Shown here piece after piece: positions 1-8,951 of a stretch of 64,000 nucleotides of DNA. This stretch comes from a bacterium (GTDB lineage Bacteria; Desulfobacterota; Binatia; DP-6): contig JAHCID010000002.1 in NCBI GenBank assembly GCA_026129405.1, positions 558,001 to 622,000 of the forward strand, written 5' to 3'. A model generated the notes under the pieces. It saw only the letters and a list, made by a program, of their open reading frames with translations. It was not told the DNA's origin and made no database searches. Both the position numbers and the translations under genes were made by a program. The stretch's first letter is position 1; every line of letters begins with the position of its first letter.

Positions 1-126
1 GGCGACGAAGCGTCGATCGACGGCTCGGAGAAACTCGCGTCCCAGGGTCGAACGCCGGGCAGAGTACCAGGCTCGGGCCTCCGCAAGATCAACCTCTGCC
101 TCCGGTAGTAGCCACAGCGGTTTCAC
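1..126 (-). CDS. RelE/ParE-family toxin, 5' part only
   Basis: The first 42 codons of a RelE/ParE-superfamily toxin, cut by the window edge. The start is GTG at 126; its GTGA overlaps the stop of the upstream antitoxin by 4 bases, the usual translational coupling of a toxin-antitoxin pair. The visible N-terminus (proline, then an acidic helix PEAEVDLAEARAWY, then a Leu-Gly-x-Glu-Phe turn) is the characteristic first helix pair of ParE/RelE toxins, which act as mRNA interferases or gyrase poisons. The catalytic C-terminal half lies outside the window, so the biochemical subtype cannot be told. It belongs to the most distal visible cassette of the integron. Confidence 0.75.
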   Translation of the reverse strand, partial: MKPLWLLPEAEVDLAEARAWYSARRSTLGREFLRAVDRRFVA

Positions 127-341
127 TTCTGCCGTTCGAGCCTCCGGCGCACCTCGCCCCACGGGCGAGCGGCCTGCGGATCTCGCGCATGCGCTCGGCG
201 GCGCCGTGCCAGCTCCTTACGCTGAGCATCGGTGACAGGAACCACCTCAGGGGTGGACGCGAGACTGTCCCACAGCTCCTCGATCAGGCTGAGACGGGCC
301 TTGGCACTCAGGGCGAGGGCTTCTCTGCGGACGGCGCTCAT
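123..341 (-). CDS. addiction-module antitoxin, unstable-antitoxin family (PF09720-like)
   Basis: A 72-residue protein with the helix-rich pattern of the 'putative addiction module component' antitoxins: residues ALSAKARLSLIEELWDSL near the N-terminus, a Pro-rich linker, then a basic tail rich in Arg. These small proteins bind and neutralise RelE/ParE toxins and are normally encoded immediately upstream of them, as here, where the toxin start overlaps this stop. It is the first gene after attC at 391-480, so the pair forms one gene cassette of the integron, expressed on the minus strand away from the integrase. Confidence 0.8.
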   Translation of the reverse strand: MSAVRREALALSAKARLSLIEELWDSLASTPEVVPVTDAQRKELARRRRAHARDPQAARPWGEVRRRLERQK

Positions 342-390
342 GGCTGTGTTCTCCGCCTGTCGACTTCGGGCAGCAAGCCGGCGTCAGTGT

Positions 391-480
391 GTCTAACGTC
401 GTGCGGATCAGCCGCGCGCCCGGCGACGCACGCCGGATTTCCCGGGGCTCGAGCGCGCCGGCTGCCTCCGCTTGTTAGCG
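391..480 (-). other. attC-like site (after first DUF4160/DUF2442 cassette from the left)
   Basis: An imperfect palindrome of about 90 bp. On the minus strand it begins with an inverse core CGCTAAC (480-474) and ends with a core GTTAGAC (397-391). The arms next to the cores match each other: CGGA-x-CAGCC-GCGCGC on one side pairs with the complementary run on the other. The upstream DUF2442 gene reads through the left arm and stops inside the site. The first base of the inverse core deviates from the RYYYAAC consensus. Confidence 0.65.
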
Positions 481-770
481 CGCTTGCGGCTCGCGAGCCA
501 CCGTTCGAAAGACCCTTGGCTCTCCGCGGAGGGGCGGCCTGCAAGAACTCCTTCAACACTGATGTCCTCATCAAGGTCGGGCCAGTGGACGCCTTCGCCC
601 GAACCGATCAGTCTCCAGTGTCGCCGCTCGCGGACCGTTCCGGACACCAGGCGCGGATACCAGGCCAATGGCACGGTCACGGAGCGGCCGTCACTCAGAT
701 CGATGGCGAGTTCGTCCTCCCCAATTCTGACCGCCACCGCCGACGGCTGCTCAACCCTTGAAGTACTCAT
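408..770 (-). CDS. DUF2442 domain protein (cassette gene)
   Basis: A 120-residue protein whose first roughly 85 residues are a DUF2442 domain: a beta-strand region with ELAIDLSDGRSVTVPLAWYPRL followed by a tryptophan-rich turn around HWRLIG and GVHWPDLDEDISVEG. The family is often encoded directly beside DUF4160 and is suspected, not proven, to be the antitoxin or partner of a toxin-antitoxin-like pair. The start overlaps the upstream DUF4160 gene by 20 bases. The last 30 or so basic residues are translated from the attC site rather than from family sequence: the expected stop in the R'' box is out of frame (GCT AAC is read as Ala-Asn), so this copy has a read-through tail. Confidence 0.8.
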   Translation of the reverse strand: MSTSRVEQPSAVAVRIGEDELAIDLSDGRSVTVPLAWYPRLVSGTVRERRHWRLIGSGEGVHWPDLDEDISVEGVLAGRPSAESQGSFERWLASRKRANKRRQPARSSPGKSGVRRRARG

Positions 771-987
771 TCCACGCCCTCACAAATCGTTCCTGATGGT
801 CAGCGACGATGCTCGATACACGGGATAGCTCATGGCGGACCAAGCCGCGACTCGAGTGGAGGCGGACCGGCGCAAGCCAGAACGTGGCGCTCCCGCCGCC
901 ACCCTCCACATGCACGTGAAGCGGCTCAGCGCGATCGCTCGCGTAGAAGAAGAACCGGTAAGGCCCCACTCGCAGGATCGTCGGCAT
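751..987 (-). CDS. DUF4160 domain protein (cassette gene)
   Basis: A 78-residue protein with all DUF4160 landmarks: MPTILRVGPYRFFFYASD at the N-terminus, the conserved EPLHVHVE histidine motif, then a helix with HELSRVSSIVADHQERFVRAW. DUF4160 is a small alpha/beta domain repeatedly found upstream of DUF2442; no biochemical role is firmly established. Together the two genes form one cassette bounded by attC sites at 1024-1084 and 391-480. A second, diverged copy of the same pair sits in another cassette at 3453-3973. Confidence 0.85.
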   Translation of the reverse strand: MPTILRVGPYRFFFYASDRAEPLHVHVEGGGGSATFWLAPVRLHSSRGLVRHELSRVSSIVADHQERFVRAWNEYFKG

Positions 988-1023
988 CGCTGACAGGCCC
1001 TCTGATCCATTCCGACCTTGGCG

Positions 1024-1084
1024 CGCTAACGACCTGGGCGCTCAGCCGCCGGCGGAGCCGGTCGGCTGCAGCGGCAGGTTAGCC
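1024..1084 (-). other. attC-like site (after BrnT-pair cassette)
   Basis: A 61-bp imperfect palindrome. On the minus strand the inverse core GGCTAAC (1084-1078) contains the TAA stop of the preceding antitoxin gene, and the core GTTAGCG ends the site (1030-1024). The arms pair through GCTAAC...GGCGCTCAGCCGCC against the complementary half. The stop codon lying in the R'' box is a typical gene-cassette signature. Confidence 0.75.
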
Positions 1085-1324
1085 AGCCCTCCGACCCGCC
1101 TTCCTACGCGCCGGCATCGCCTTGATTACCGAGCGCAGGAACGAGTTGACTGAATCGGACGAGTTGAACACCGATGTGACGTCGGGCGCGAGCACCACGG
1201 CGACTGCGTTCTTCGGCACCTGCCCTGCGAACCGATTCGCCTTCGCCGTCCGATAGTCGAAGCGATACTCCGGACGCATGTCCGTCGCCGAGGCCACGCT
1301 ACGCTTACGAGGTGCCTTCTTCAT
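1079..1324 (-). CDS. probable antitoxin partner of BrnT (cassette gene)
   Basis: An 81-residue basic protein, starting at the ATG at 1324, which overlaps the end of brnT by 20 bases; a longer reading from 1405 would run through brnT and is unlikely. It has a central YRFDYRTAKANRFAG segment followed by VAVVLAPDVTSVFNSSDSVN and a helix FLRSVIKA. This is the pattern of small BrnT-linked proteins whose middle strand reads VVLxPDVxxVFxxSxSVNxxLR. It is not a canonical BrnA (no recognisable DUF4415/CopG segment). Role as antitoxin is inferred from its place after a BrnT toxin. The stop codon lies within the attC R'' box. Confidence 0.65.
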   Translation of the reverse strand: MKKAPRKRSVASATDMRPEYRFDYRTAKANRFAGQVPKNAVAVVLAPDVTSVFNSSDSVNSFLRSVIKAMPARRKAGRRAG

Positions 1325-1589
1325 AGTCCTGCCTTTCCTGTCGCGTCGCCCTGCGCGCGCTGAATATGCGAATGCGGGCGGACCGCTGAACGAAGCAGAT
1401 GACAATCAGCCGGCGGCGAGCATCGTGACCGACTAGTATCTCGCGCGCCTCGCTGCCGGAGTGATCCGGGTCGTCGAAGATGCGGGCCAGAGGGTCTCCG
1501 AATGCGCCAACGGCCTCCTCGAACGAGACGCGATGCTTCTCTCGGTTCCCCGCCGCCTTCTTCGGGTCCCATTCGAAGCTCAAGTCCAT
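1305..1589 (-). CDS. brnT: BrnT family toxin (cassette gene)
   Basis: A 94-residue BrnT (DUF497) protein. It opens with FEWDPKKAAGNREKHRVSFEEA, the family hallmark (F-x-W-D-x-x-K-x-x-x-N-x-x-K-H-x-V-x-F), continues with the GDPLARIFDDPDH turn, and ends with the ILVGHDARRRLIVICFV strand and the RIRIFSARRATRQERQDYE motif. BrnT is a ribonuclease toxin with a RelE-like fold, neutralised by a downstream antitoxin. Here the partner is a non-canonical small protein overlapping its 3' end. The two genes form one integron cassette. Length matches the family. Confidence 0.88.
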   Translation of the reverse strand: MDLSFEWDPKKAAGNREKHRVSFEEAVGAFGDPLARIFDDPDHSGSEAREILVGHDARRRLIVICFVQRSARIRIFSARRATRQERQDYEEGTS

Positions 1590-1633
1590 CGAGAGCTGCC
1601 ACTTCTAGCATGCGGGAGCGCGATTTGCCGCCT

Positions 1634-1664
1634 GGCTAACAACGACTGGCGCTCGACTAGCCAG
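1634..1664 (-). other. degenerate, short attC-like site (after HNH cassette)
   Basis: The core GTTAGCC (1640-1634, minus strand) is intact, but the inverse core reads GGCTAGT around the stop of the HNH gene remnant instead of GGCTAAC. The whole site is only about 31 bp. It marks the boundary between the HNH cassette and the BrnT cassette and looks like a decayed attC. Confidence 0.45.
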
Positions 1665-1900
1665 CGCCGTCGCCATTGCCGATTCTCTTCTCGAGTTCAC
1701 GAAGCCACACCCGCTCTCGAGATGTTAGACGCTGTGGCGCTTCACGCCCGATCGCGATGAAGACCGAGGCAAGCCCGTCCCACCGTGTGGGCTCACCGTA
1801 ACGGCCACGGATGATCTTCGATGGATGCCTCGCCAGGTGCACGCCCCTTCTCACTGCTGCTCTTACGCGCGTTGCACTTGTTACATGCCACGGCGAGATT

Positions 1901-1904
1901 CTCC
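1901..1904. repeat. target-site duplication CTCC, left copy
   Basis: CTCC immediately outside the IS end at 1905; the same four bases follow the other end at 3105-3108. Four base pairs is normal for IS407-type IS3 elements. Confidence 0.75.
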
Positions 1905-1919
1905 CGTAAGCACCCCCGT
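1905..1919 (+). repeat. IS terminal inverted repeat, orfB end
   Basis: Begins CGTAAGCACCCCCGT. The first twelve bases are identical to the opposite end read inwards; similarity continues further with a one-base gap. Confidence 0.8.
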
Positions 1920-2752
1920 CAAGGACCCCAGGCATTGCTGGACTCCATCGGGGTTGGGGGCCGCGGGAGAAAGCGCGTGGACGGGACGTCGCCCAGCGAT
2001 TCGTGCGGCCGGTGGTCGTTGTCGGTCACGAGCCAGTCGTCGGTCTGCCGTTGCACCTCACGCACCGACCCGAAGAGGTGCGCGTCGAGCACTTCGTTCC
2101 GGTAGGTGCGGTTGAAGCGTTCGATGAAGGCGTTCTGATCGGGCTTGCCGGGCTGGATGTACCGGATCGCGATGCGGTGCTGCTGACACCAGTCGGCGAA
2201 GAGCTGGGCCGTGAGCTCCGGCCCGTTGTCGACGCGCACCGCCTCAGGCCGCCCGTAGATCTCGATCAGCTGCTTGAGCACCCGCACGACGCGCGCCGCC
2301 GGGAGGGCCGTCCCGACCTCGATCGCGAGCGCTTCCCGGTTCGCCTCGTCGAGGACGTTGAGGGTTCGAAACGGCCGGCCGCCGTAGAGCGCATCATGCA
2401 TGAAGTCGAGGGCCCAGATGCCGTTGAGTGTGGAGGGGGCGACCAGCGGCTCGCGCAGGCGGGTCGGGACGCGCCGCTTCGTGCGCCGCGGCAGATTCAA
2501 GCGCAGCGCGCAGTACACGCGATGCACGTGCTTGTGGTTCCAGCCGTGGCCATCGAGGCGCAGGCGCGTGAAGCACTTCCAGAAGCCCCAGCGGCCGTGC
2601 TGCTCGACGAGCGCCAGCAGCGCCGCGATCACCGCCGCATCCCGGGTCGTCGCCTCCGCCGGCCGTCGATACCATGCCGTCCGCGACAGCCCGACCGCTC
2701 GGCACGCGCGTCGAACCGGGAGCTGATGCTCCGTGACCAGGATCGCCGTCAC
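1919..2752 (-). CDS. IS3-family transposase OrfB (DDE integrase domain)
   Basis: A 277-residue OrfB. An N-terminal HTH-like segment (VRRACRAVGLSRTAWYRRP) is followed by the HTH_21-type GRWGFWKCFTRLRLDGHGWNHKHVHRVY region and an rve catalytic core. The DDE residues are visible: Asp in NGIWALDFMHD, Asp in VRVDNGPE, and Glu in IERFNRTYRNEV. The GTG start used here is only the first possible independent start. The frame is open further upstream through the end of orfA, and OrfB is probably made mainly as an OrfAB fusion by -1 frameshifting at the A-AAG string at 2782-2779. It catalyses cut-and-copy transposition of this IS. Confidence 0.93.
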   Translation of the reverse strand: MTAILVTEHQLPVRRACRAVGLSRTAWYRRPAEATTRDAAVIAALLALVEQHGRWGFWKCFTRLRLDGHGWNHKHVHRVYCALRLNLPRRTKRRVPTRLREPLVAPSTLNGIWALDFMHDALYGGRPFRTLNVLDEANREALAIEVGTALPAARVVRVLKQLIEIYGRPEAVRVDNGPELTAQLFADWCQQHRIAIRYIQPGKPDQNAFIERFNRTYRNEVLDAHLFGSVREVQRQTDDWLVTDNDHRPHESLGDVPSTRFLPRPPTPMESSNAWGP

Positions 2753-2772
2753 CTGGCGCCTCGCGGCCGGCC

Positions 2773-3039
2773 CTACAGCTTTCGCTGCAGGACGTCCTTG
2801 ATCGCGGCGTTCTCGAGCGCGAGCTCCGCGTACATCCGCTTGAGCTTCGTGTTCTCGGCCTCGATCTCCTTCATCCGCCGCAGCTCCGCGACGGACGTCC
2901 CGGCGTACTTCGCGCGCCAGTTGAAGTAGGTCGCGCGGCTGATCCCGTGGCGGCGCAACAGCTCAGCCACCGGCACGCCGGCTTCTCCCTCCCGCAAGAT
3001 CGACACGATCTGCTCTTCCGCGAAGCGGGACTTGCGCAT
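2773..3039 (-). CDS. IS3-family transposase OrfA
   Basis: An 88-residue OrfA: an N-terminal helix-turn-helix (FAEEQIVSILREGEAGVPVA, then LLRRHGISRATYFNWRAKYAG) and a C-terminal leucine-zipper-like helix (LKRMYAELALENAAIKDVL). This is the classic IS407-group OrfA, which binds the inverted repeats and fuses to OrfB by programmed frameshift. The last codons CGA AAG CTG TAG contain an A-AAG slippery string four codons before the stop, in the right phase to shift into orfB. Confidence 0.93.
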   Translation of the reverse strand: MRKSRFAEEQIVSILREGEAGVPVAELLRRHGISRATYFNWRAKYAGTSVAELRRMKEIEAENTKLKRMYAELALENAAIKDVLQRKL

Positions 3040-3089
3040 GTTCCCTTCCTGCGACGGCCCGCGGAGTCTACCATCGCGCGGTGTCCGAA

Positions 3090-3104
3090 CGAGGGGTGCT
3101 TACG
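3090..3104 (-). repeat. IS terminal inverted repeat, orfA end
   Basis: Read inwards on the minus strand it begins CGTAAGCACCCCTCG, matching the first twelve bases of the end at 1905. Confidence 0.8.
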
Positions 3105-3108
3105 CTCC
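3105..3108. repeat. target-site duplication CTCC, right copy
   Basis: The second copy of the CTCC flanking the IS; GGAG on the coding strand restores the Glu codon of the interrupted HNH reading frame. Confidence 0.75.
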
Positions 3109-3398
3109 GACGCGGCTGCCCCACCTCTCGCATGCGGCGTGATATGGTCGATCACGCAGGCGAGCTGGTCAAGAAGCGGCGCGGCGTCGCGTCGATAGCG
3201 AAGGTCGTAGTACGCGAGCGGGAGTTTCGAGGCCCTTCCCCCGAACGAACGAGGCGAGGTATTTCATCGCCAGCGGAAAGATCGTCGGCGCCCGTGGCAG
3301 AGTGAGCACAGCCAGCGATCCCTGAACAGGACCTCGACCTGGATTGCCACAGGGATCGTCGTTCGCTTCTCACCCATGGTGCCTCGTCCGCTGGGGCT

Positions 3399-3458
3399 GC
3401 CCAACAGCCGGGCGATGAGCGGCCGGCGTAGCCGGTCCGCTCCATCGGCGGGTTAGGC
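3399..3458 (-). other. attC-like site (after second DUF4160/DUF2442 cassette)
   Basis: A 60-bp imperfect palindrome. Minus strand inverse core GCCTAAC (3458-3452) holds the TAA stop of the preceding DUF2442 gene; core GTTGGGC ends it (3405-3399). The arms read GGCGATGAGCGGCCGG on one side and CCGGTCCGCTCCATCG on the other. The same GGCGATGAGCGGCC / GGTCCGCTCCATCG pair recurs in the attC at 4005-4103, as expected for a homogeneous attC family of one array. Confidence 0.85.
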
Positions 3459-3704
3459 GGCCGCACTCGACTTCGCCCGCTCATAGAGAGTCTCCGGGGC
3501 GATGTCGGCGCCGTTCGGCCAGGTCACCGTGCCGCCCTCGATGAAGAAGCGCGCGAAGTAGTCTTGGTCCCGGAGGGGCTCGAACACCGGCCCGTTCAGC
3601 CAAGGAGCAAAGTCCACCACCGCCTCCAGCCCATCGTTGAAGGTCAGATGGATGGAGTACCCGCCACGGTGCTCCGCTCTCGTCACGTTCGGCAAGAAGC
3701 TCAT
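3453..3704 (-). CDS. DUF2442 domain protein, second copy (cassette gene)
   Basis: An 83-residue DUF2442 protein beginning MSFLPNVTRAEHRGGYSIHL, then the diagnostic FNDGLEAVVDFAPWLNGPVF, EPLRDQDYFARFFIEGGTVTW and PNGADIAPETLYERA. The ATG at 3704 was chosen, 8 bases after the DUF4160 stop; a TTG at 3716 would overlap that stop instead. The TAA stop lies in the attC inverse core. Unlike the copy at 408-770 it has the compact length usual for the family and no read-through tail. Confidence 0.87.
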   Translation of the reverse strand: MSFLPNVTRAEHRGGYSIHLTFNDGLEAVVDFAPWLNGPVFEPLRDQDYFARFFIEGGTVTWPNGADIAPETLYERAKSSAAA

Positions 3705-3712
3705 GGTTGTCC

Positions 3713-3973
3713 TCAATCCAGCGGCGCGATCTTCTCAAGCGGCTCACCCGCCTGCACCCGCCGCCAGTTCGCTTCCAGGTCGGGCCCATGAAGGCTGGCC
3801 CACTCTTCTACCAACCTCAGAGCGGTCCGTGAACGGATCGCCCCGGCGAGCACTTTCCCGTCGAAGGTGACGGTCGCCTGCTGCCCCTGGTACTCCACAT
3901 GGAAGTGGGGCACGCCATGCTCTTGGTAGAACATGCGGATCACGATGCCGAAGAAGGTGGAGATCACCGGCAC
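3713..3973 (-). CDS. DUF4160 domain protein, second copy (cassette gene)
   Basis: An 86-residue DUF4160 protein: MPVISTFFGIVIRMFYQEHG, then the conserved VPHFHVEYQGQQATV histidine motif and the helix LRLVEEWASLHGPDLEANWRR. It is paired with DUF2442 in the same order as at 751-987, yet the two pairs share little sequence, so they were probably acquired as separate cassettes rather than duplicated in place. Confidence 0.88.
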   Translation of the reverse strand: MPVISTFFGIVIRMFYQEHGVPHFHVEYQGQQATVTFDGKVLAGAIRSRTALRLVEEWASLHGPDLEANWRRVQAGEPLEKIAPLD

Positions 3974-4004
3974 AGGCAGTCTCTACTCCCCTTCGGTTCC
4001 TGCT

Positions 4005-4103
4005 GCCTAACGACCAGGCGATGAGCGGCCGCGGGCAACACGCCCGCTTCGATTCTCGCCGCGCCCGTTCGTTCCCGCGGTCCGCTCCATCGCCAGGTTA
4101 GAC
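4005..4103 (-). other. attC-like site (after EVE-nuclease cassette)
   Basis: A 99-bp palindrome with inverse core GTCTAAC (4103-4097, minus strand) and core GTTAGGC (4011-4005). Outer arms CAGGCGATGAGCGGCCGCGGG and CCCGCGGTCCGCTCCATCGCC pair almost throughout, giving the most extended stem of the array. It lies 24 bases beyond the stop of the preceding gene. Confidence 0.88.
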
Positions 4104-4127
4104 GACGAGATGAAGGGTTCGCCCATC

Positions 4128-4991
4128 TTACTTCACTCCGATTCCGAAGCGGTGGAGCTTCCGCGGCAAGACATCATCAAGGCGCGCGATATCCACCTCC
4201 TCCAGCTCCAGGAGGTTGAGCTTGTGCCGCTGGTAGAGCTTCAGCTTTTCCTCTCGACGCCTCTGGTAAGCGGGCGAATCGAGCCCCCAGTGCTCGATGT
4301 AGCAACCAGCGCCGAGGTCGATGTGGAAATCACAGAACGCGTTCTCTGGTATGGGTAGCCGACGCTCATACGCATGAGGCACATGATGATGGTGGAGCCA
4401 GTTGCAGATCGTCAGCTCCGACTTCGACCGGACGAAATGGCCATCGTCTGCACGAAGCTGCACCGGGGGCGTAGGTCGCGGATCCGGCTGCGGGTCGCTC
4501 CGCTGTTGGGACCGCTCGACGAGCTCGACACTCGCCTGTACCGGAGCGAAGAGGACGCCCTGATCCACACCACCATCCGACATCACTTCGGGCCGCGGCT
4601 CGAAGAGGCAACTACCCTTCGGCTGCCAGATATCCCGGAGAACAAGGCGCCAGTTGTTGTCACGGCGTGTATACCAGTTCTGGTTCACGTCGGTGACCCG
4701 AGTGAAACGAAACCGGACCGGATAGAGTTCGCCGCGCTGCTTCCCGTAGGTCCAGACGGGCGTGTCATCGTAGAAGACGTCGCCATCGATGACCGCTCGG
4801 AAGAGTGCGAGCGGGCCGGCGCAAGCGACGAACTCAGCAGCCGATCCGAAGCCGCACTCCTGCAAGATCGCGCGGCACTCTTCCCTGCGATGCCGCCCAC
4901 GGGGGAGACCCCAGAGCAGCTTCTTCCGTCCGAGCATCCAGTGATCGACGGAGCCGCTGAGCAGGAAGATGCGCCTTGGAAGTGCGGTCAT
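4128..4991 (-). CDS. EVE-like domain fused to PD-(D/E)XK-like nuclease domain (cassette gene)
   Basis: A 287-residue two-domain protein. Residues about 5-125 resemble an EVE/PUA-fold reader: FLLSGSVDHW, LLWGLP, an acidic DDTPVW segment and YPVRFRFTRV sit where EVE domains have their YW-, WG- and YPxR-type motifs. A Pro/Gln-rich linker follows (about 150-180). Residues 186-287 look like a PD-(D/E)XK nuclease of the kind found at the C-termini of some helicases: SKSE (189-192), CDFHID (220-225), YIEHWG (231-236), then an RREEKLKLYQRH helix. EVE domains bind modified cytosine and, fused to nucleases, form modification-dependent restriction systems; an anti-phage role is therefore plausible but inferred. 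It is the sole gene of its cassette, and its ATG overlaps by 4 bases the stop of a gene read through from the previous cassette. Confidence 0.65.
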   Translation of the reverse strand: MTALPRRIFLLSGSVDHWMLGRKKLLWGLPRGRHRREECRAILQECGFGSAAEFVACAGPLALFRAVIDGDVFYDDTPVWTYGKQRGELYPVRFRFTRVTDVNQNWYTRRDNNWRLVLRDIWQPKGSCLFEPRPEVMSDGGVDQGVLFAPVQASVELVERSQQRSDPQPDPRPTPPVQLRADDGHFVRSKSELTICNWLHHHHVPHAYERRLPIPENAFCDFHIDLGAGCYIEHWGLDSPAYQRRREEKLKLYQRHKLNLLELEEVDIARLDDVLPRKLHRFGIGVK

Positions 4992-5278
4992 GTTCTTCGC
5001 CGGAGTCGTCTAACGCCCCTGGCGATCAGCGGCGGGTTAGACGCTCTCACGGGCATCCGTCTCGCCAACGCTCGCTCAGCCGCCAGCGGCAGCCTGACCA
5101 GCACGAAATTGGCGGCGGGATAGAGGTAGTCCTCTCCGGACTCGTCCACCACACGAACGAACCCCTCTCGTGCCGCAAGCGCGTCGGGCAGCTTCACGTA
5201 CAACTTCCGTAGCTCGAGGTCTTCGCACCCGGAGTTGCGGACGCAGAGCAGATACTGCTTCTTCCGCATCGCGCTCAT
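4988..5278 (-). CDS. conserved small hypothetical protein, reads through attC
   Basis: A 96-residue protein starting MSAMRKKQYLLCVRNSGCED. The core LELRKLYVKLPDALAAREGF, VRVVDESGEDYLYPAANFV and the end LPLAAERALA match a widespread small uncharacterised family whose members normally stop there. Here the frame stays open through the short attC at 5042-5008 and stops at 4988, the TGA overlapping the ATG of the EVE-nuclease gene. The roughly 27 extra residues are attC-derived. It begins one base inside the stop of the 5278-5511 gene (TGATG), so the two are coupled and form one cassette. Function unknown. Confidence 0.65.
   Translation of the reverse strand: MSAMRKKQYLLCVRNSGCEDLELRKLYVKLPDALAAREGFVRVVDESGEDYLYPAANFVLVRLPLAAERALARRMPVRASNPPLIARGVRRLRRRT
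5008..5042 (-). other. short attC-like site (after hypothetical pair)
   Basis: A 35-bp near-palindrome with GTCTAAC and GTTAGAC at its ends. At about 35 bp it is well below the usual lower size of attC sites (near 57 bp) and seems to be a collapsed version of its neighbours, keeping only a GGCGATCAGCGG remnant of the shared arm. Confidence 0.6.
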
Positions 5279-5511
5279 CAGTCGAGCAGCCTCTTCACTT
5301 TCATCCTGACCCTCCCAACACCGTGCGCCTCGTACCAGTGTACCTCTGCCTGCCGCACGCGCCCACCCCGAAGGCGGACGAACGCGACCCCCTTGAGCTT
5401 TCGCCACCGCCCCCGGCCGTGCTGCCGCCTGAGGCGTGCGAGATCGCGGATGCCTTGCCTTGACGCGATGACGACCACGTCCTCGATCTCACTGAGCAGC
5501 TCGAAGTACAT
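5278..5511 (-). CDS. conserved small hypothetical protein (cassette gene)
   Basis: A 77-residue protein. MYFELLSEIEDVVVIASRQG leads into LARLRRQHGRGRWRKLKGVA, a strand FVRLRGGRVRQAEVHWYEAHG and a basic end RVRMKVKRLLD. The GRWRKLKGVAxVRL and EVHWYEAHGxGR motifs define a small conserved family that travels with the gene downstream (4988-5278). I know of no assigned function. The order and TGATG overlap suggest a two-component unit; a toxin-antitoxin-like role is possible but unsupported. Confidence 0.7.
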   Translation of the reverse strand: MYFELLSEIEDVVVIASRQGIRDLARLRRQHGRGRWRKLKGVAFVRLRGGRVRQAEVHWYEAHGVGRVRMKVKRLLD

Positions 5512-5541
5512 GCTTCGACTCGAGGCACGAGACCGCGGTGC

Positions 5542-5585
5542 GTCTAACGCCGTAGCGCTGAGCGCCCGGCGACTGCTCGTTACTC
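5542..5585 (-). other. attC-like site (after first cassette)
   Basis: About 44 bp, with inverse core GAGTAAC (5585-5579, minus strand), which contains the TAA stop of the preceding gene, and core GTTAGAC (5548-5542). A central GCGCT-C-AGCGC hairpin is visible. The first inverse-core bases fit the consensus only loosely. Confidence 0.6.
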
Positions 5586-5978
5586 ATCGCCGAAATAACC
5601 TCCGCCCTCTTTCCATATCTCGTATCCATCCAGTTCTTCGGCACTCACGACTCCGGGTGCGATGAAGACTGGTTCCCATGCGAGGAATGCCCTTCGGGTC
5701 AGGGGAAGATGTCCCATCCCGAATCCGTCGGCGTCGTCGACACTTCCCAGTGTCAAAGAGCTCGGGTCGGCAGTCGCCGGGCGCGTGGAGAACTTCTTTT
5801 TGTAAAGCCTCATGTGCACGCCGCGATCATCGAGCGCGAGAATCTTTGCGATGCGATAGTGGCCCTCGCCGTCGTCGACCGAATAGAGAGCCCCGACTTC
5901 AAGCTTCGGTTGAGACGGGCGACAGCCGCAGATCTCAGAGAGTCCAAGGAGCACGATGGGAACCAGTGCGAATCTCAT
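5580..5978 (-). CDS. putative lipoprotein, conserved hypothetical (first cassette)
   Basis: A 132-residue protein starting at the ATG at 5978: MRFALVPIVLLGLSEICGC is a short signal sequence with a possible lipobox cysteine at residue 17. The mature part has YSVDDGEGHYRIAKILALDD, VHMRLYKKKFSTRP, GHLPLTRRAFLAWEPVFI and DGYEIWKEGGGYF, motifs of an uncharacterised conserved family. It is the cassette next to the putative attI, 22 bases from the recombination core, the position of the most recently inserted cassette. Its TAA stop lies in its attC. Confidence 0.65.
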   Translation of the reverse strand: MRFALVPIVLLGLSEICGCRPSQPKLEVGALYSVDDGEGHYRIAKILALDDRGVHMRLYKKKFSTRPATADPSSLTLGSVDDADGFGMGHLPLTRRAFLAWEPVFIAPGVVSAEELDGYEIWKEGGGYFGDE

Positions 5979-5999
5979 CCGTCGAGCCTGTCTCAGCAC

Positions 6000-6025
6000 G
6001 TCTAACGAACCTTCGACCGACCTGC
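6000..6025 (-). other. putative attI / first cassette junction
   Basis: On the minus strand a core GTTAGAC (6006-6000) lies just after the integrase stop codon (6028-6026), preceded by GGTCGGTCGAAGGTTC, and begins the first cassette. No palindromic partner lies to its right, as expected for attI rather than attC. Only the core site is identifiable; accessory integrase-binding sites cannot be defined by eye. Confidence 0.5.
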
Positions 6026-7229
6026 CTAATCCCGGCCCCCACGCGGCGCTCGCGGCCTATCCGCGGCGCCGGGCGGGCGGGAAGGAACAGGCAAACTCCG
6101 AATATCCCGGCGGGCCTCGACCGCACGTGTGGCCGACTTCGCGCGGATAGGCGGCGACGGTTCGCAGCCTATCCGCACCGGACCTGCAGCGCCCGACCGC
6201 GCTGGCGCCAGTCCATCGACAGGACTTCGCACGCCCAGGCCGCCGCGGTTGAGGACGTGCGTGTAGATCATCGTCGTGCGGACGTCGCGGTGGCCGAGCA
6301 GCTCCTGCACGGTGCGGATGTCGTATCCGTCCTCCAGCAGGTGCGTCGCGAACGAATGCCGGAACGTGTGGCAGCCCGCGGGCTTCGCGATGCCCGCCGC
6401 GAGCACGGCCTCGCGCACGACGCGCTGGAGGGCCGACTCGTGGAAGTGGTGCCGCCGCTGCTGGCCCGTCTCGGAATGCCGGTAGGAGCGCGTGGCGGGA
6501 AACACCCACTGCCACGGCCACGAGCGGCCGGCATTGACGTACTTCCGGTCGAGCGCGTGCGGCAGCTCCACCCATCCGGCGTCCCGGGCCAGGTCGTCGG
6601 CGTGTTGCCGTCGCACGCGTGCGAGGTGGGCGGCCAGCGGTTCCCGCACGACCGCCGGCAGCATCGTGCGCCGGTCGCGCCCGCCCTTGCCGCTGCGCAC
6701 GACGATCTCTCCACGCTCGAAGTCGACGTCCTTCACCCGCAGTCGCAGGCACTCGAGCAGGCGGAGGCCGGCCCCGTAGAGCAGCGCCGCCATGAGCCAC
6801 CGGCTTCCACCGAGCTGCCCGAGGACGGCGGCCACCTCGGCGCGGCTCAGCACGACGGGCACGTGCGCCGGCCGCTGCGCGCGGACGAGGCCGTCGAGCC
6901 ACGGCAGATCGACGTCGAGCACGTGCCGTGTAGAGGAAGAGCAGGGCGCTCAGCGCCTGGTTCTGCGTCGACGCTGCCACCCGCCGCTCCACCGCCAGCG
7001 CCGAGAGGAGCGCCGGCACCTCGTCCGCGCCGAGCGTCGGCGGGTGCCGCCGGCCGTGGAACAGGATGTAGCGTCGGATCCAGAAGACGTAGGCCTGCTC
7101 GGTTCGGCGGCTCATGTGCCGCGTCTGCAGCGCGATGCGCACGCGATCGAGCAGGCGCGGCTGACGCTGCCCGTACGCCGGCGGCTGCTCGGCGACGGCG
7201 AACGCGACGGCGGTGGCCGGAACAGGCAT
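6026..7229 (-). CDS. intI: integron integrase IntI (tyrosine recombinase), one frameshift
   Basis: Catalyses attC x attI recombination of gene cassettes. The N-terminal SAM-like domain starts at the ATG at 7229 and includes [19 protein letters not shown]. The catalytic part has [19 protein letters not shown] (first Arg), [11 protein letters not shown], the integron-specific insertion around [19 protein letters not shown] and [11 protein letters not shown], then [29 protein letters not shown] and [12 protein letters not shown]. The two parts are in different frames: one extra base near 6923 separates LLFLYTA from [11 protein letters not shown]. Past VRSPVDG the frame stays open about 55 residues longer than usual and stops 19 bases before the putative attI. 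It lies in the same orientation as the cassettes. It is either inactive or carries a sequencing error. Confidence 0.9.
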
Positions 7230-8731: not shown

Positions 8732-8951
8732 CGCGCGGACCCTCGTTTCGAATCGTGCGACGGCGGTGCCGCGCCCCCGGGACCGCGTTTCGGACCTCGC
8801 AGAGGCGGTGCTGTGCGTGTCCGACGACGATCCACATCCTGATCCTGCAAGGGCGGTGCTGCGCACGCTCGACGCCGTTTCGAGCCCCGCAACGGCGGTG
8901 CTGCGGCCGACCGGGGCCGTTTTTGGACCCTGCGGCGACGGTGCCGCTCGC
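8732..8951. repeat. degenerate 42-bp tandem repeat, about five units
   Basis: Five imperfect units share a core close to CCGTTTCGGACC-TGCAACGGCGGTGCTGCG. The GGCGGTGC landmark recurs at 8762, 8804, 8852, 8894 and about 8937, so the spacing is 42, 48, 42 and 43. The block fills most of the gap 8670-9058, where no convincing gene is seen. Confidence 0.65.

What the first reader, a model, noticed from the sequence alone, without database searches (positions are those of the whole stretch)
1..7229. Integron whose integrase points into its own cassette array
Seen: an IntI with the integron-specific insertion and RHRRY motifs ends 19 bases before a GTTAGAC core; at least eight minus-strand cassettes with seven attC-like boundaries follow in the same orientation, several with the stop codon in the R'' box. 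Known: in class 1 and Vibrio-type integrons intI is transcribed away from the cassettes and Pc lies within or beside intI; reversed integrases are known in only a few lineages (Treponema, Blastopirellula). Inference: a chromosomal integron of the inverted type, possibly with read-through of intI transcription into cassettes.
Basis: partly seen in the sequence, partly recalled or inferred. Interest (0 to 1): 0.88.

Follow-up and report, generated by a model that had tools for sequence, protein, structure and literature searches.

The report
Reverse integron with a broken integrase
This is a real chromosomal integron of the already described 'reverse' type, in which the integrase gene points into its own gene cassettes, but here the integrase gene is split by a frameshift and one of its cassettes has an exact copy in a second integron of the same genome.

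Summary
The anatomy is confirmed with corrections. An integron integrase gene (TIGR02249, 343 bits, cut-off 265) points into same-strand cassettes; attI lies about 200 nt past the conserved IntI end. The integrase is split into two frames. The genome carries three such platforms (C2 = window, C6, C1), each with attC sites past intI on its strand and each with a damaged intI. Their homology stops at the attI core. A 633-nt toxin-antitoxin-like cassette of the window is 100% identical in first position of the C1 array, although C1 and C2 platforms are about 87% alike: evidence of recent cassette movement. Reverse layout is not rare: 15 of 17 class-relative loci with attC hits and 11 of 34 comparison loci with hits have it (a sample biased to similar integrases), in four named phyla. 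On an IntI tree the two layouts separate almost completely, and Treponema falls with the reverse ones; a single origin is neither shown nor rejected. So: a new, degenerate member of the known reverse-integron kind. Read-through from intI is untested.

The parts
6927..7229 (-). intI, 5' part: N-terminal region in a different frame from the rest
   Evidence: TIGR02249 profile 1-76 at G000:C2:564927-565154 = window 6927-7154, 84.6 bits; ATG at 7229-7227
6026..6922 (-). intI, 3' part: catalytic domain with IntI-type insertion; conserved IntI end at 6209, then 60 codons running through most of attI
   Evidence: TIGR02249 343 bits, profile 79-315; alignment A2; stop distance
6000..6068 (-). attI: core GTTAGAC 6006-6000 and the block before it; homology between the three platforms ends at this core
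   Evidence: C2-C1 differences 2 of 67 here against 40 of 144 in the adjoining stretch, Fisher p 5e-6
6047..6174 (-). three copies of a GGATAGGCYGCGA-type repeat (6174-6159 direct, 6145-6160 inverted, 6062-6047 direct), possible integrase accessory sites; tentative
   Evidence: 14, 13 and 14 of 15 letters; 0 of 200 shuffles reached the best direct copy
5008..5042 (-). degenerate attC (no inner L stem, no loop region)
   Evidence: R1 23.5 bits E 8.7e-4; R2 19.8 bits E 0.016
4128..4991 (-). cassette ORF, 287 aa; C-terminal part like candidate defence proteins, some with a PD-(D/E)XK label
   Evidence: PADLOC PDC-S69 E 4e-34 over residues 170-285, HEAT_CxxC_PDDEXK E 9e-10; no Pfam/NCBIfam hit
4005..4103 (-). 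attC
   Evidence: R1 54.6 bits E 7.8e-12; plus strand only 22.4
3453..3973 (-). cassette with two ORFs: DUF4160 (3713-3973) and DUF2442 (3453-3716), weakly like DhiT and DhiA
   Evidence: (below the NCBIfam cut-offs)
3399..3458 (-). attC; R'' holds the stop codon of 3453-3716
   Evidence: R1 49.9 bits E 1.3e-10; plus strand 18.0
1905..3104 (-). IS3-family insertion sequence inside the array (orfA 2773-3039, orfB 1919-2752); 93% copy at G000:C7
   Evidence: NF033516 197 bits; imperfect terminal repeats, no clear target duplication
1079..1589 (-). cassette ORFs: BrnT-type toxin (1305-1589) and partner-position ORF 1079-1405
   Evidence: PF04365 E 9e-25; ORF 1079-1405 no Pfam family
1024..1084 (-). 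attC; R'' holds the stop codon of 1079-1405
   Evidence: R1 47.0 bits E 7.2e-10
397..1029 (-). complete cassette (DUF4160 751-987 + DUF2442 408-770), 100% identical to the first cassette of the C1 platform
391..479 (-). attC of that cassette
   Evidence: R1 46.9 bits E 7.9e-10
1..341 (-). part of a cassette: TIGR02574-type antitoxin (123-341) and a 91-aa toxin-position ORF that runs past coordinate 1
   Evidence: TIGR02574 61 bits, cut-off 31.9; ORF from 162 to 113 nt beyond coordinate 1; weak attC beyond coordinate 1

Best explanation
A sedentary chromosomal integron of the reverse (inverted) type in decay. Shown: intI and cassettes lie on one strand, attI is about 200 nt past the conserved IntI end, attC sites have the polarity of the cassettes, and intI is frameshifted. 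Inferred: when intact, the integrase joined the folded strand of attC to the attI core at 6006, so each new cassette entered right behind intI and was read in the same direction. Shown: one cassette sits, letter for letter, in two platforms of this genome with ends at the recombination cores. Inferred: it was moved by an IntI of this kind not long ago, before or despite the intI lesions. Expression most likely comes from the cassettes' own promoters (toxin-antitoxin type cassettes) and perhaps from upstream of intI; not tested.
For: TIGR02249 over cut-off; held-out attC hits, all minus, with the opposite strand scoring far lower at the two places where it is listed; rarity of such sites in the genome (13 over 40 bits); three platforms with the same layout; homology of the three ends at the attI core; exact 633-nt cassette shared by C2 and C1 with ends at the cores; covariation of the attC stems (82 both-side changes against 28 in shuffles; seeds had been picked partly for pairing); tree position among reverse IntIs.
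Against: No match in the genome covers the whole TIGR02249 profile in one reading frame with its motifs intact, so present activity is doubtful; two claimed boundaries lack attC support; attI function rests on comparison, not on an assay; a single-base assembly error in the window's intI cannot be excluded, although rpoB, rpoC and gyrA each read through in one frame; the branch that divides reverse from canonical IntIs is weak.
Confidence: 0.9

Rival explanations
1. A fully active reverse integron: the frameshift is an assembly error or is bypassed, and intI transcription reads through into the cassettes.
For: The window's intI differs from the C6 copy by one length difference at the place where its frame changes; C2-C6 differences in the catalytic part fall 3, 6 and 21 on codon positions 1, 2 and 3, as under selection until lately; the shared cassette shows recent activity.
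Against: The C6 and C1 copies are damaged too, at other places; three long housekeeping genes are unbroken; no promoter-like site was found, though the consensus suits this GC-rich DNA poorly.
Confidence: 0.12
2. A platform served in trans: intI is dead but attI is kept because another IntI (a transient plasmid or phage gene, or a formerly intact paralog) still inserts cassettes there.
For: attI block 2 of 67 differences between C1 and C2 against 40 of 144 in the adjoining stretch (p 5e-6), 0 of 67 between C2 and C6 apart from one extra base in C6; identical cassette in two platforms.
Against: Against the intI coding sequence itself the attI excess is only borderline (2 of 67 against 69 of 658, p 0.051); no further IntI over cut-off in the genome; movement may predate the lesions; the cassette may have been captured twice from a common source.
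Confidence: 0.2
3. Not an integron: XerC/D-type recombinase beside ordinary genes with chance inverted repeats.
For: Two of the claimed boundaries indeed fail.
Against: TIGR02249 hit and tree split from two XerC/D-like proteins of the own genome (99 SH-aLRT); held-out attC E-values down to 8e-12; exact cassette unit shared between arrays.
Confidence: 0.01

Closest known systems
Reverse ('unusual') integrons of Treponema denticola and relatives (PMC3607928: passages and section 9 seen; PMC7691350 and PMC6557892: passages seen)
   Same: intI transcribed toward attI and in the direction of the cassettes; attI between the intI end and the first cassette; toxin-antitoxin cassettes; a Treponema IntI (L158) groups with two reverse rows, 100/91
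   Different: High-GC host of a class I could not name; three platforms in one genome, all with damaged intI; short arrays. The layout of L158 itself was not scored here (no attC hit with either model)
Inverted IntI sub-clade within soil/freshwater IntIs (PMC8352920, passages and section 8 seen)
   Same: Reverse layouts group together on the tree (3 changes for 53 labelled rows)
   Different: That paper gives the sub-clade one sentence in what I read; I saw no platform of this class there
Reverse integron on the Gemmatirosa kalamazoonensis plasmid NZ_CP007129.1 (L082)
   Same: 21 attC sites downstream on the intI strand; among the reverse rows
   Different: intI in one frame over the aligned 313 residues, longer array
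Class 1 integrons (canonical; L083)
   Same: IntI family and attC architecture
   Different: Cassettes lie on the other side of intI and on the opposite strand
Xanthomonas integrons with inactivated intI (PMC12444791, passages seen)
   Same: intI lost by frameshifts and truncation, array kept
   Different: There the platform sits downstream of ilvD in nearly all genomes; layout not discussed in the passages seen

Membership tests
Integron | IntI-family tyrosine recombinase gene | tested here: met
   TIGR02249 343 bits, cut-off 265
Integron | Array of attC sites with the R/L stems and unpaired base | tested here: met
   Four held-out sites 46.9-54.6 bits
Integron | attI beside intI where cassettes enter | tested here: met
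   Three platforms alike up to the core, then different cassettes; by comparison only, no assay
Integron | Intact integrase | tested here: not met
   Window: two frames. C6: one open frame but about 65 codons over the HxxR region read out of frame. C1: 119 nt missing and the HxxR arginine changed. Activity itself not tested
Reverse (inverted) integron | Cassettes on the intI strand, downstream of its 3' end | tested here: met
   5 of 5 sites in the window, 14 of 14 in the three own platforms, after removing opposite-strand shadows
Reverse (inverted) integron | IntI groups with other reverse IntIs | tested here: met
   Window fragment on one side with 20 of 21 reverse rows, Treponema and one canonical row; no starred set holds it there; dividing branch weak (19/95); one clade in 0 of 200 bootstrap trees but not rejected, p-AU 0.40
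Reverse (inverted) integron | Co-transcription of intI and cassettes | not testable with these tools
   No RNA data; promoter scan empty
Canonical (class 1 / Vibrio type) integron | Cassettes divergent from intI | tested here: not met
XerC/XerD | Scores over the XerC or XerD model cut-off | tested here: not met
   118 of 335 and 109 of 330 bits

The most novel reading that the evidence does not exclude
A genome with three reverse integron platforms whose own integrases are all dead, in which attI sites are still kept and cassettes still hop between platforms through an integrase acting in trans; reverse integrons would then be a widespread, old branch of the integron world (four named phyla plus this class in my sample) with a separate way of loading and expressing cassettes.
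Probability: 0.2. Interest if true: 0.65.

Novelty: new member of a known kind. Interest (0 to 1): 0.42.

Why it matters
In textbook integrons a dedicated promoter beside intI fires away from it into the cassettes (recalled, and as stated in PMC7691350 and PMC6557892, passages seen). In reverse integrons new cassettes land behind intI, so integrase and cassette expression could be coupled. The comparison here suggests that this layout is broad and not an oddity of a few lineages, and the exact cassette shared between two platforms of one genome gives a defined substrate on which attI and attC of the reverse type can be tested.

Tried and rejected
Rfam at gathering thresholds gave nothing in the window. 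A hand-made stem scanner found 2 window sites in its strict form and 2 again when relaxed, with shuffled sequence reaching scores up to 32.5 and 36.5, so it was used only to collect seeds; the covariance model decided. The promoter/terminator scan was empty, as in shuffles. A pattern search for the repeat near 8760-8940 found nothing in the genome, not even at that place, so the pattern was too strict to say anything; Tandem Repeats Finder found no array there. The idea that the GGATAGGC repeats are a general attI feature of reverse integrons was weakened: besides the three own platforms only L091 and L070 beat every shuffle, and the canonical locus L079 did too. An open reading frame running 34-62 codons past the conserved IntI end occurs in many class loci, but in such GC-rich DNA this is near what chance gives (my estimate, not a call). 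A core 150-320 nt past intI is commoner in reverse (21 of 27) than canonical loci (11 of 30), p 0.003, but far from exclusive.

Dropped before counts: opposite-strand shadows at the place of a stronger hit (one more, 18.0 bits, was never typed in), the weak hits in L039 and L045, and the weak C6 hit upstream of intI (L041:14142-14229, 10.3 bits). L142 (an IntI1-like integrase with one weak downstream site) is in the counts but not in the tree. That tree also leaves out five reverse loci with short integrase fragments (L053, L054, L055, L057, L060) and uses the window's fragment in place of the three own platforms. Loci without attC hits (66 of 120) were not labelled there; eight of them got labels. 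Seeds of model R1 all come from reverse platforms and were taken from scans of the intI strand only, so the class counts are not independent of that choice; the window and the 82 comparison loci are. Model R2 holds one shadow row (L041 19518-19604 minus) and a near copy of the window's 391-479 site. An earlier count said the attI block is 100% identical between C1 and C2; the count is 2 differences in 67.

Full report
What is there. The window is G000:C2:558001-622000 of a 5.63-Mb, 15-contig genome rated 100% complete. On the minus strand an integron-type integrase lies at 7229-6026. Its catalytic part (6026-6922) scores 343 bits with TIGR02249 (cut-off 265) over profile positions 79-315, against 118 for XerC and 109 for XerD, and carries the IntI-type insertion and catalytic motifs in alignment with 19 other IntIs (that these are the IntI hallmarks is recalled). 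Profile positions 1-76 lie in another frame at 6927-7154: the gene is split. Over the coding part the window and the C6 copy differ in length at three places, one of them where the window's frame changes. rpoB, rpoC and gyrA of this genome each read through in a single frame, so general indel noise is unlikely, though one local error cannot be excluded.

attC sites. Model R1 was built from 29 sites of the two other platforms of this genome and of class relatives; no window site was used. In the window it finds, all on the minus strand, 4005-4103 (54.6 bits), 3399-3458 (49.9), 1024-1084 (47.0), 391-479 (46.9) and a stunted 5008-5042 (23.5); the plus strand of the first two scores 22.4 and 18.0. 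In the genome search 13 sites exceed 40 bits: four here, five at C1, three at C6 and an orphan at C1:733445-733504 (best 150 of 28312 candidates scored). The stems covary across the 29 seeds (82 cells with both sides changed, 28.3 in shuffles, 0 of 500 as high; two of the five measures, pairs with a change on both sides and further pair types, do not stand out, 71 and 112 of 500), with the caution that seeds were partly picked for pairing. Read on the intI strand, 40 of 50 scanner candidates scoring 33 or more have the unpaired base on the 5' arm of the L stem, 8 on the 3' arm, 2 none (some of these are not true sites).

Three platforms. DNA search shows the unit again at C6 (97% over 1.3 kb) and C1 (87%) and a fragment at C2:218 kb. 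In all three the attC sites lie past the 3' end of intI on its strand (14 of 14 sites, shadows removed). Aligned, the three are alike from upstream of the intI start to GGTTCGTTAG and then differ at once, which marks attI and its crossover point at window 6006. The 67 compared columns before it hold 0 differences between C2 and C6 (plus one extra base in C6) and 2 between C2 and C1, while the adjoining 144 columns hold 3 and 40 (Fisher p 5e-6 for C2-C1); against the intI coding part the contrast is borderline (p 0.051). None of the three integrases is whole: C6 has one open frame, but about 65 codons around the HxxR region are read out of frame; C1 lacks 119 nt of the 5' part, has further length changes and has lost the arginine of HxxR. 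No other match of the genome listed reaches the cut-off.

A moved cassette. Window 397-1029 is 100% identical over 633 nt to C1:1639094-1639726; identity runs from 393 to 1032 and stops within the cores at both ends, with different flanks. In C1 it is the first cassette, directly at attI. Platforms about 87% alike thus share a letter-perfect cassette. Homologous recombination would not be expected to stop at the cores; movement by an IntI, or two captures of one cassette from a common source, explains it. The cassette encodes a DUF4160/DUF2442 pair, related by weak hits to the DhiT toxin model. More distant copies (71-72%) occur in G002 and G050 of the class (14 of 148 genomes, the own one included, with any match at 1e-6).

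Cassette content. Read from attI: ORFs 5580-5999 and 5278-5511 without a family (not every library for each); 4128-4991, whose C-terminal part resembles PADLOC candidate PDC-S69; a DUF4160/DUF2442 pair; a BrnT-type toxin with a partner-position ORF, in a stretch that also holds an IS3-family element; the shared pair; and a TIGR02574 antitoxin with an ORF in toxin position running past coordinate 1. [quoted passage not shown]

How common is the layout. R1 was run on both strands of 34 class loci and 82 comparison loci. With the own genome 178 attC sites in 54 loci were sorted: 109 lie downstream on the intI strand, 69 upstream on the other strand, none in the two other arrangements. Reverse: 3 of 3 own platforms with sites, 15 of 17 class loci with sites (17 of 34 had none), 11 of 34 comparison loci with sites (48 of 82 had none). 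Reverse comparison loci are Acidobacteriota (L085, L087, L091, L096, L109), Planctomycetota (L090, L136), Gemmatimonadota (L082, L118), Actinomycetota (L154) and Sphingopyxis L142, whose integrase is IntI1-like and whose single weak site I do not trust. Several rest on one or two sites and most are MAG contigs, whose binning can err; L082 (plasmid) and L090 (complete chromosome) are the safest. Canonical within this class: L076 and L079. Model R2 labelled further loci, seven canonical and one reverse, L114. The comparison set is the 80 most similar of 589 plus two plasmid loci, so shares are not frequencies. attC hits at E <= 1e-4 occur in 61 of 145 class genomes under strict filters that showed only 3 sites in the own genome; TIGR02249 hits over cut-off in 21 of 58 genomes, the own one included.

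Tree. A quick tree of 109 rows separates two XerC/D-like proteins of the own genome from all IntIs (99) and puts the window fragment in a starred set of 16 rows, 8 reverse, 7 unlabelled and itself; ignoring unlabelled rows it needs 4 changes of layout, but when they are counted as a group of their own no label is clustered beyond shuffles. A careful tree of 55 rows (21 reverse, 32 canonical, a Treponema IntI, the window fragment) needs 3 changes; shuffled labels need 16.8 on average, 0 of 500 as few. Against a clean split: canonical L152 falls among the reverse rows, reverse L114 among the canonical ones, the dividing branch has little bootstrap support (19/95), the bootstrap had not settled, and the reverse rows were one clade in 0 of 200 bootstrap trees. 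A single clade without L114, but with Treponema and the window, is not rejected (p-AU 0.40). Treponema, a published reverse integron carrier, groups with two reverse rows (100/91). The root, and so which layout is older, is not settled.

Mechanism. Most likely, when intact, IntI joined folded attC to the core at 6006, so that cassettes entered right behind intI and were read the same way (inference from anatomy and from recalled integron biochemistry). There is no T-tailed terminator and no sigma-70-like promoter by consensus between 5500 and 7500; between intI and attI a strong stem without a T tail can fold, built from two of three copies of a GGATAGGC-type repeat. Whether it binds IntI or shapes transcription is open. 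Whether the locus is inert or loaded in trans is open too.

Compared with print. 'Reverse integron' is an established term (PMC7691350, passages; PMC6557892, passages, which lists T. denticola, A. baumannii, C. phaeobacteroides and B. marina), the Treponema layout is described (PMC3607928, passages and section 9), and an inverted IntI sub-clade is mentioned (PMC8352920, passages and section 8). A passage of PMC9668308 says typical Spirochaetota IntIs are generally in reverse orientation. Term searches inside PMC3108266 and PMC2426708 showed nothing on layout. intI loss with a kept array is reported in Xanthomonas (PMC12444791, passages). My searches of the held library (listings only, 12 of 44 shown) did not list a report of several reverse platforms in one genome or a survey of reverse layouts across these phyla by title or start of abstract; subscription journals are largely missing there. 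Verdict: a new, degenerate member of a known kind.

Noticed in passing
G000:C1:733445-733504: A lone attC of 58.7 bits far from the three platforms: perhaps a single cassette outside them.
   Followed up: no
window 8762-8940: Short GGCGGTG-type copies at 8762, 8804, 8852 and 8894 (42-48 nt apart) beyond the 5' side of intI; a 66-nt stretch of it is 76% like one upstream of the C6 intI (L041:15045-15110).
   Followed up: partly
L041:17521-17580 and L069:7411-7470: Nearly identical attC sites in two different families of the class, hinting at a shared cassette pool.
   Followed up: no
attC sites of alignment A1: The unpaired base of the L'' arm is mostly G on the cassette strand here, where the resistance cassettes I recall have C; not checked by a call against a reference set.
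   Followed up: no
L045:8251-8666 (G000:C2:218 kb): Fourth, fragmentary integron integrase in the genome, with only weak attC hits beside it (18.8 and 16.9 bits).
   Followed up: partly
L114:12179-12278: A gammaproteobacterial locus with one reverse-placed attC (35.9 bits) but an IntI among canonical ones; a possible independent switch of layout.
   Followed up: no
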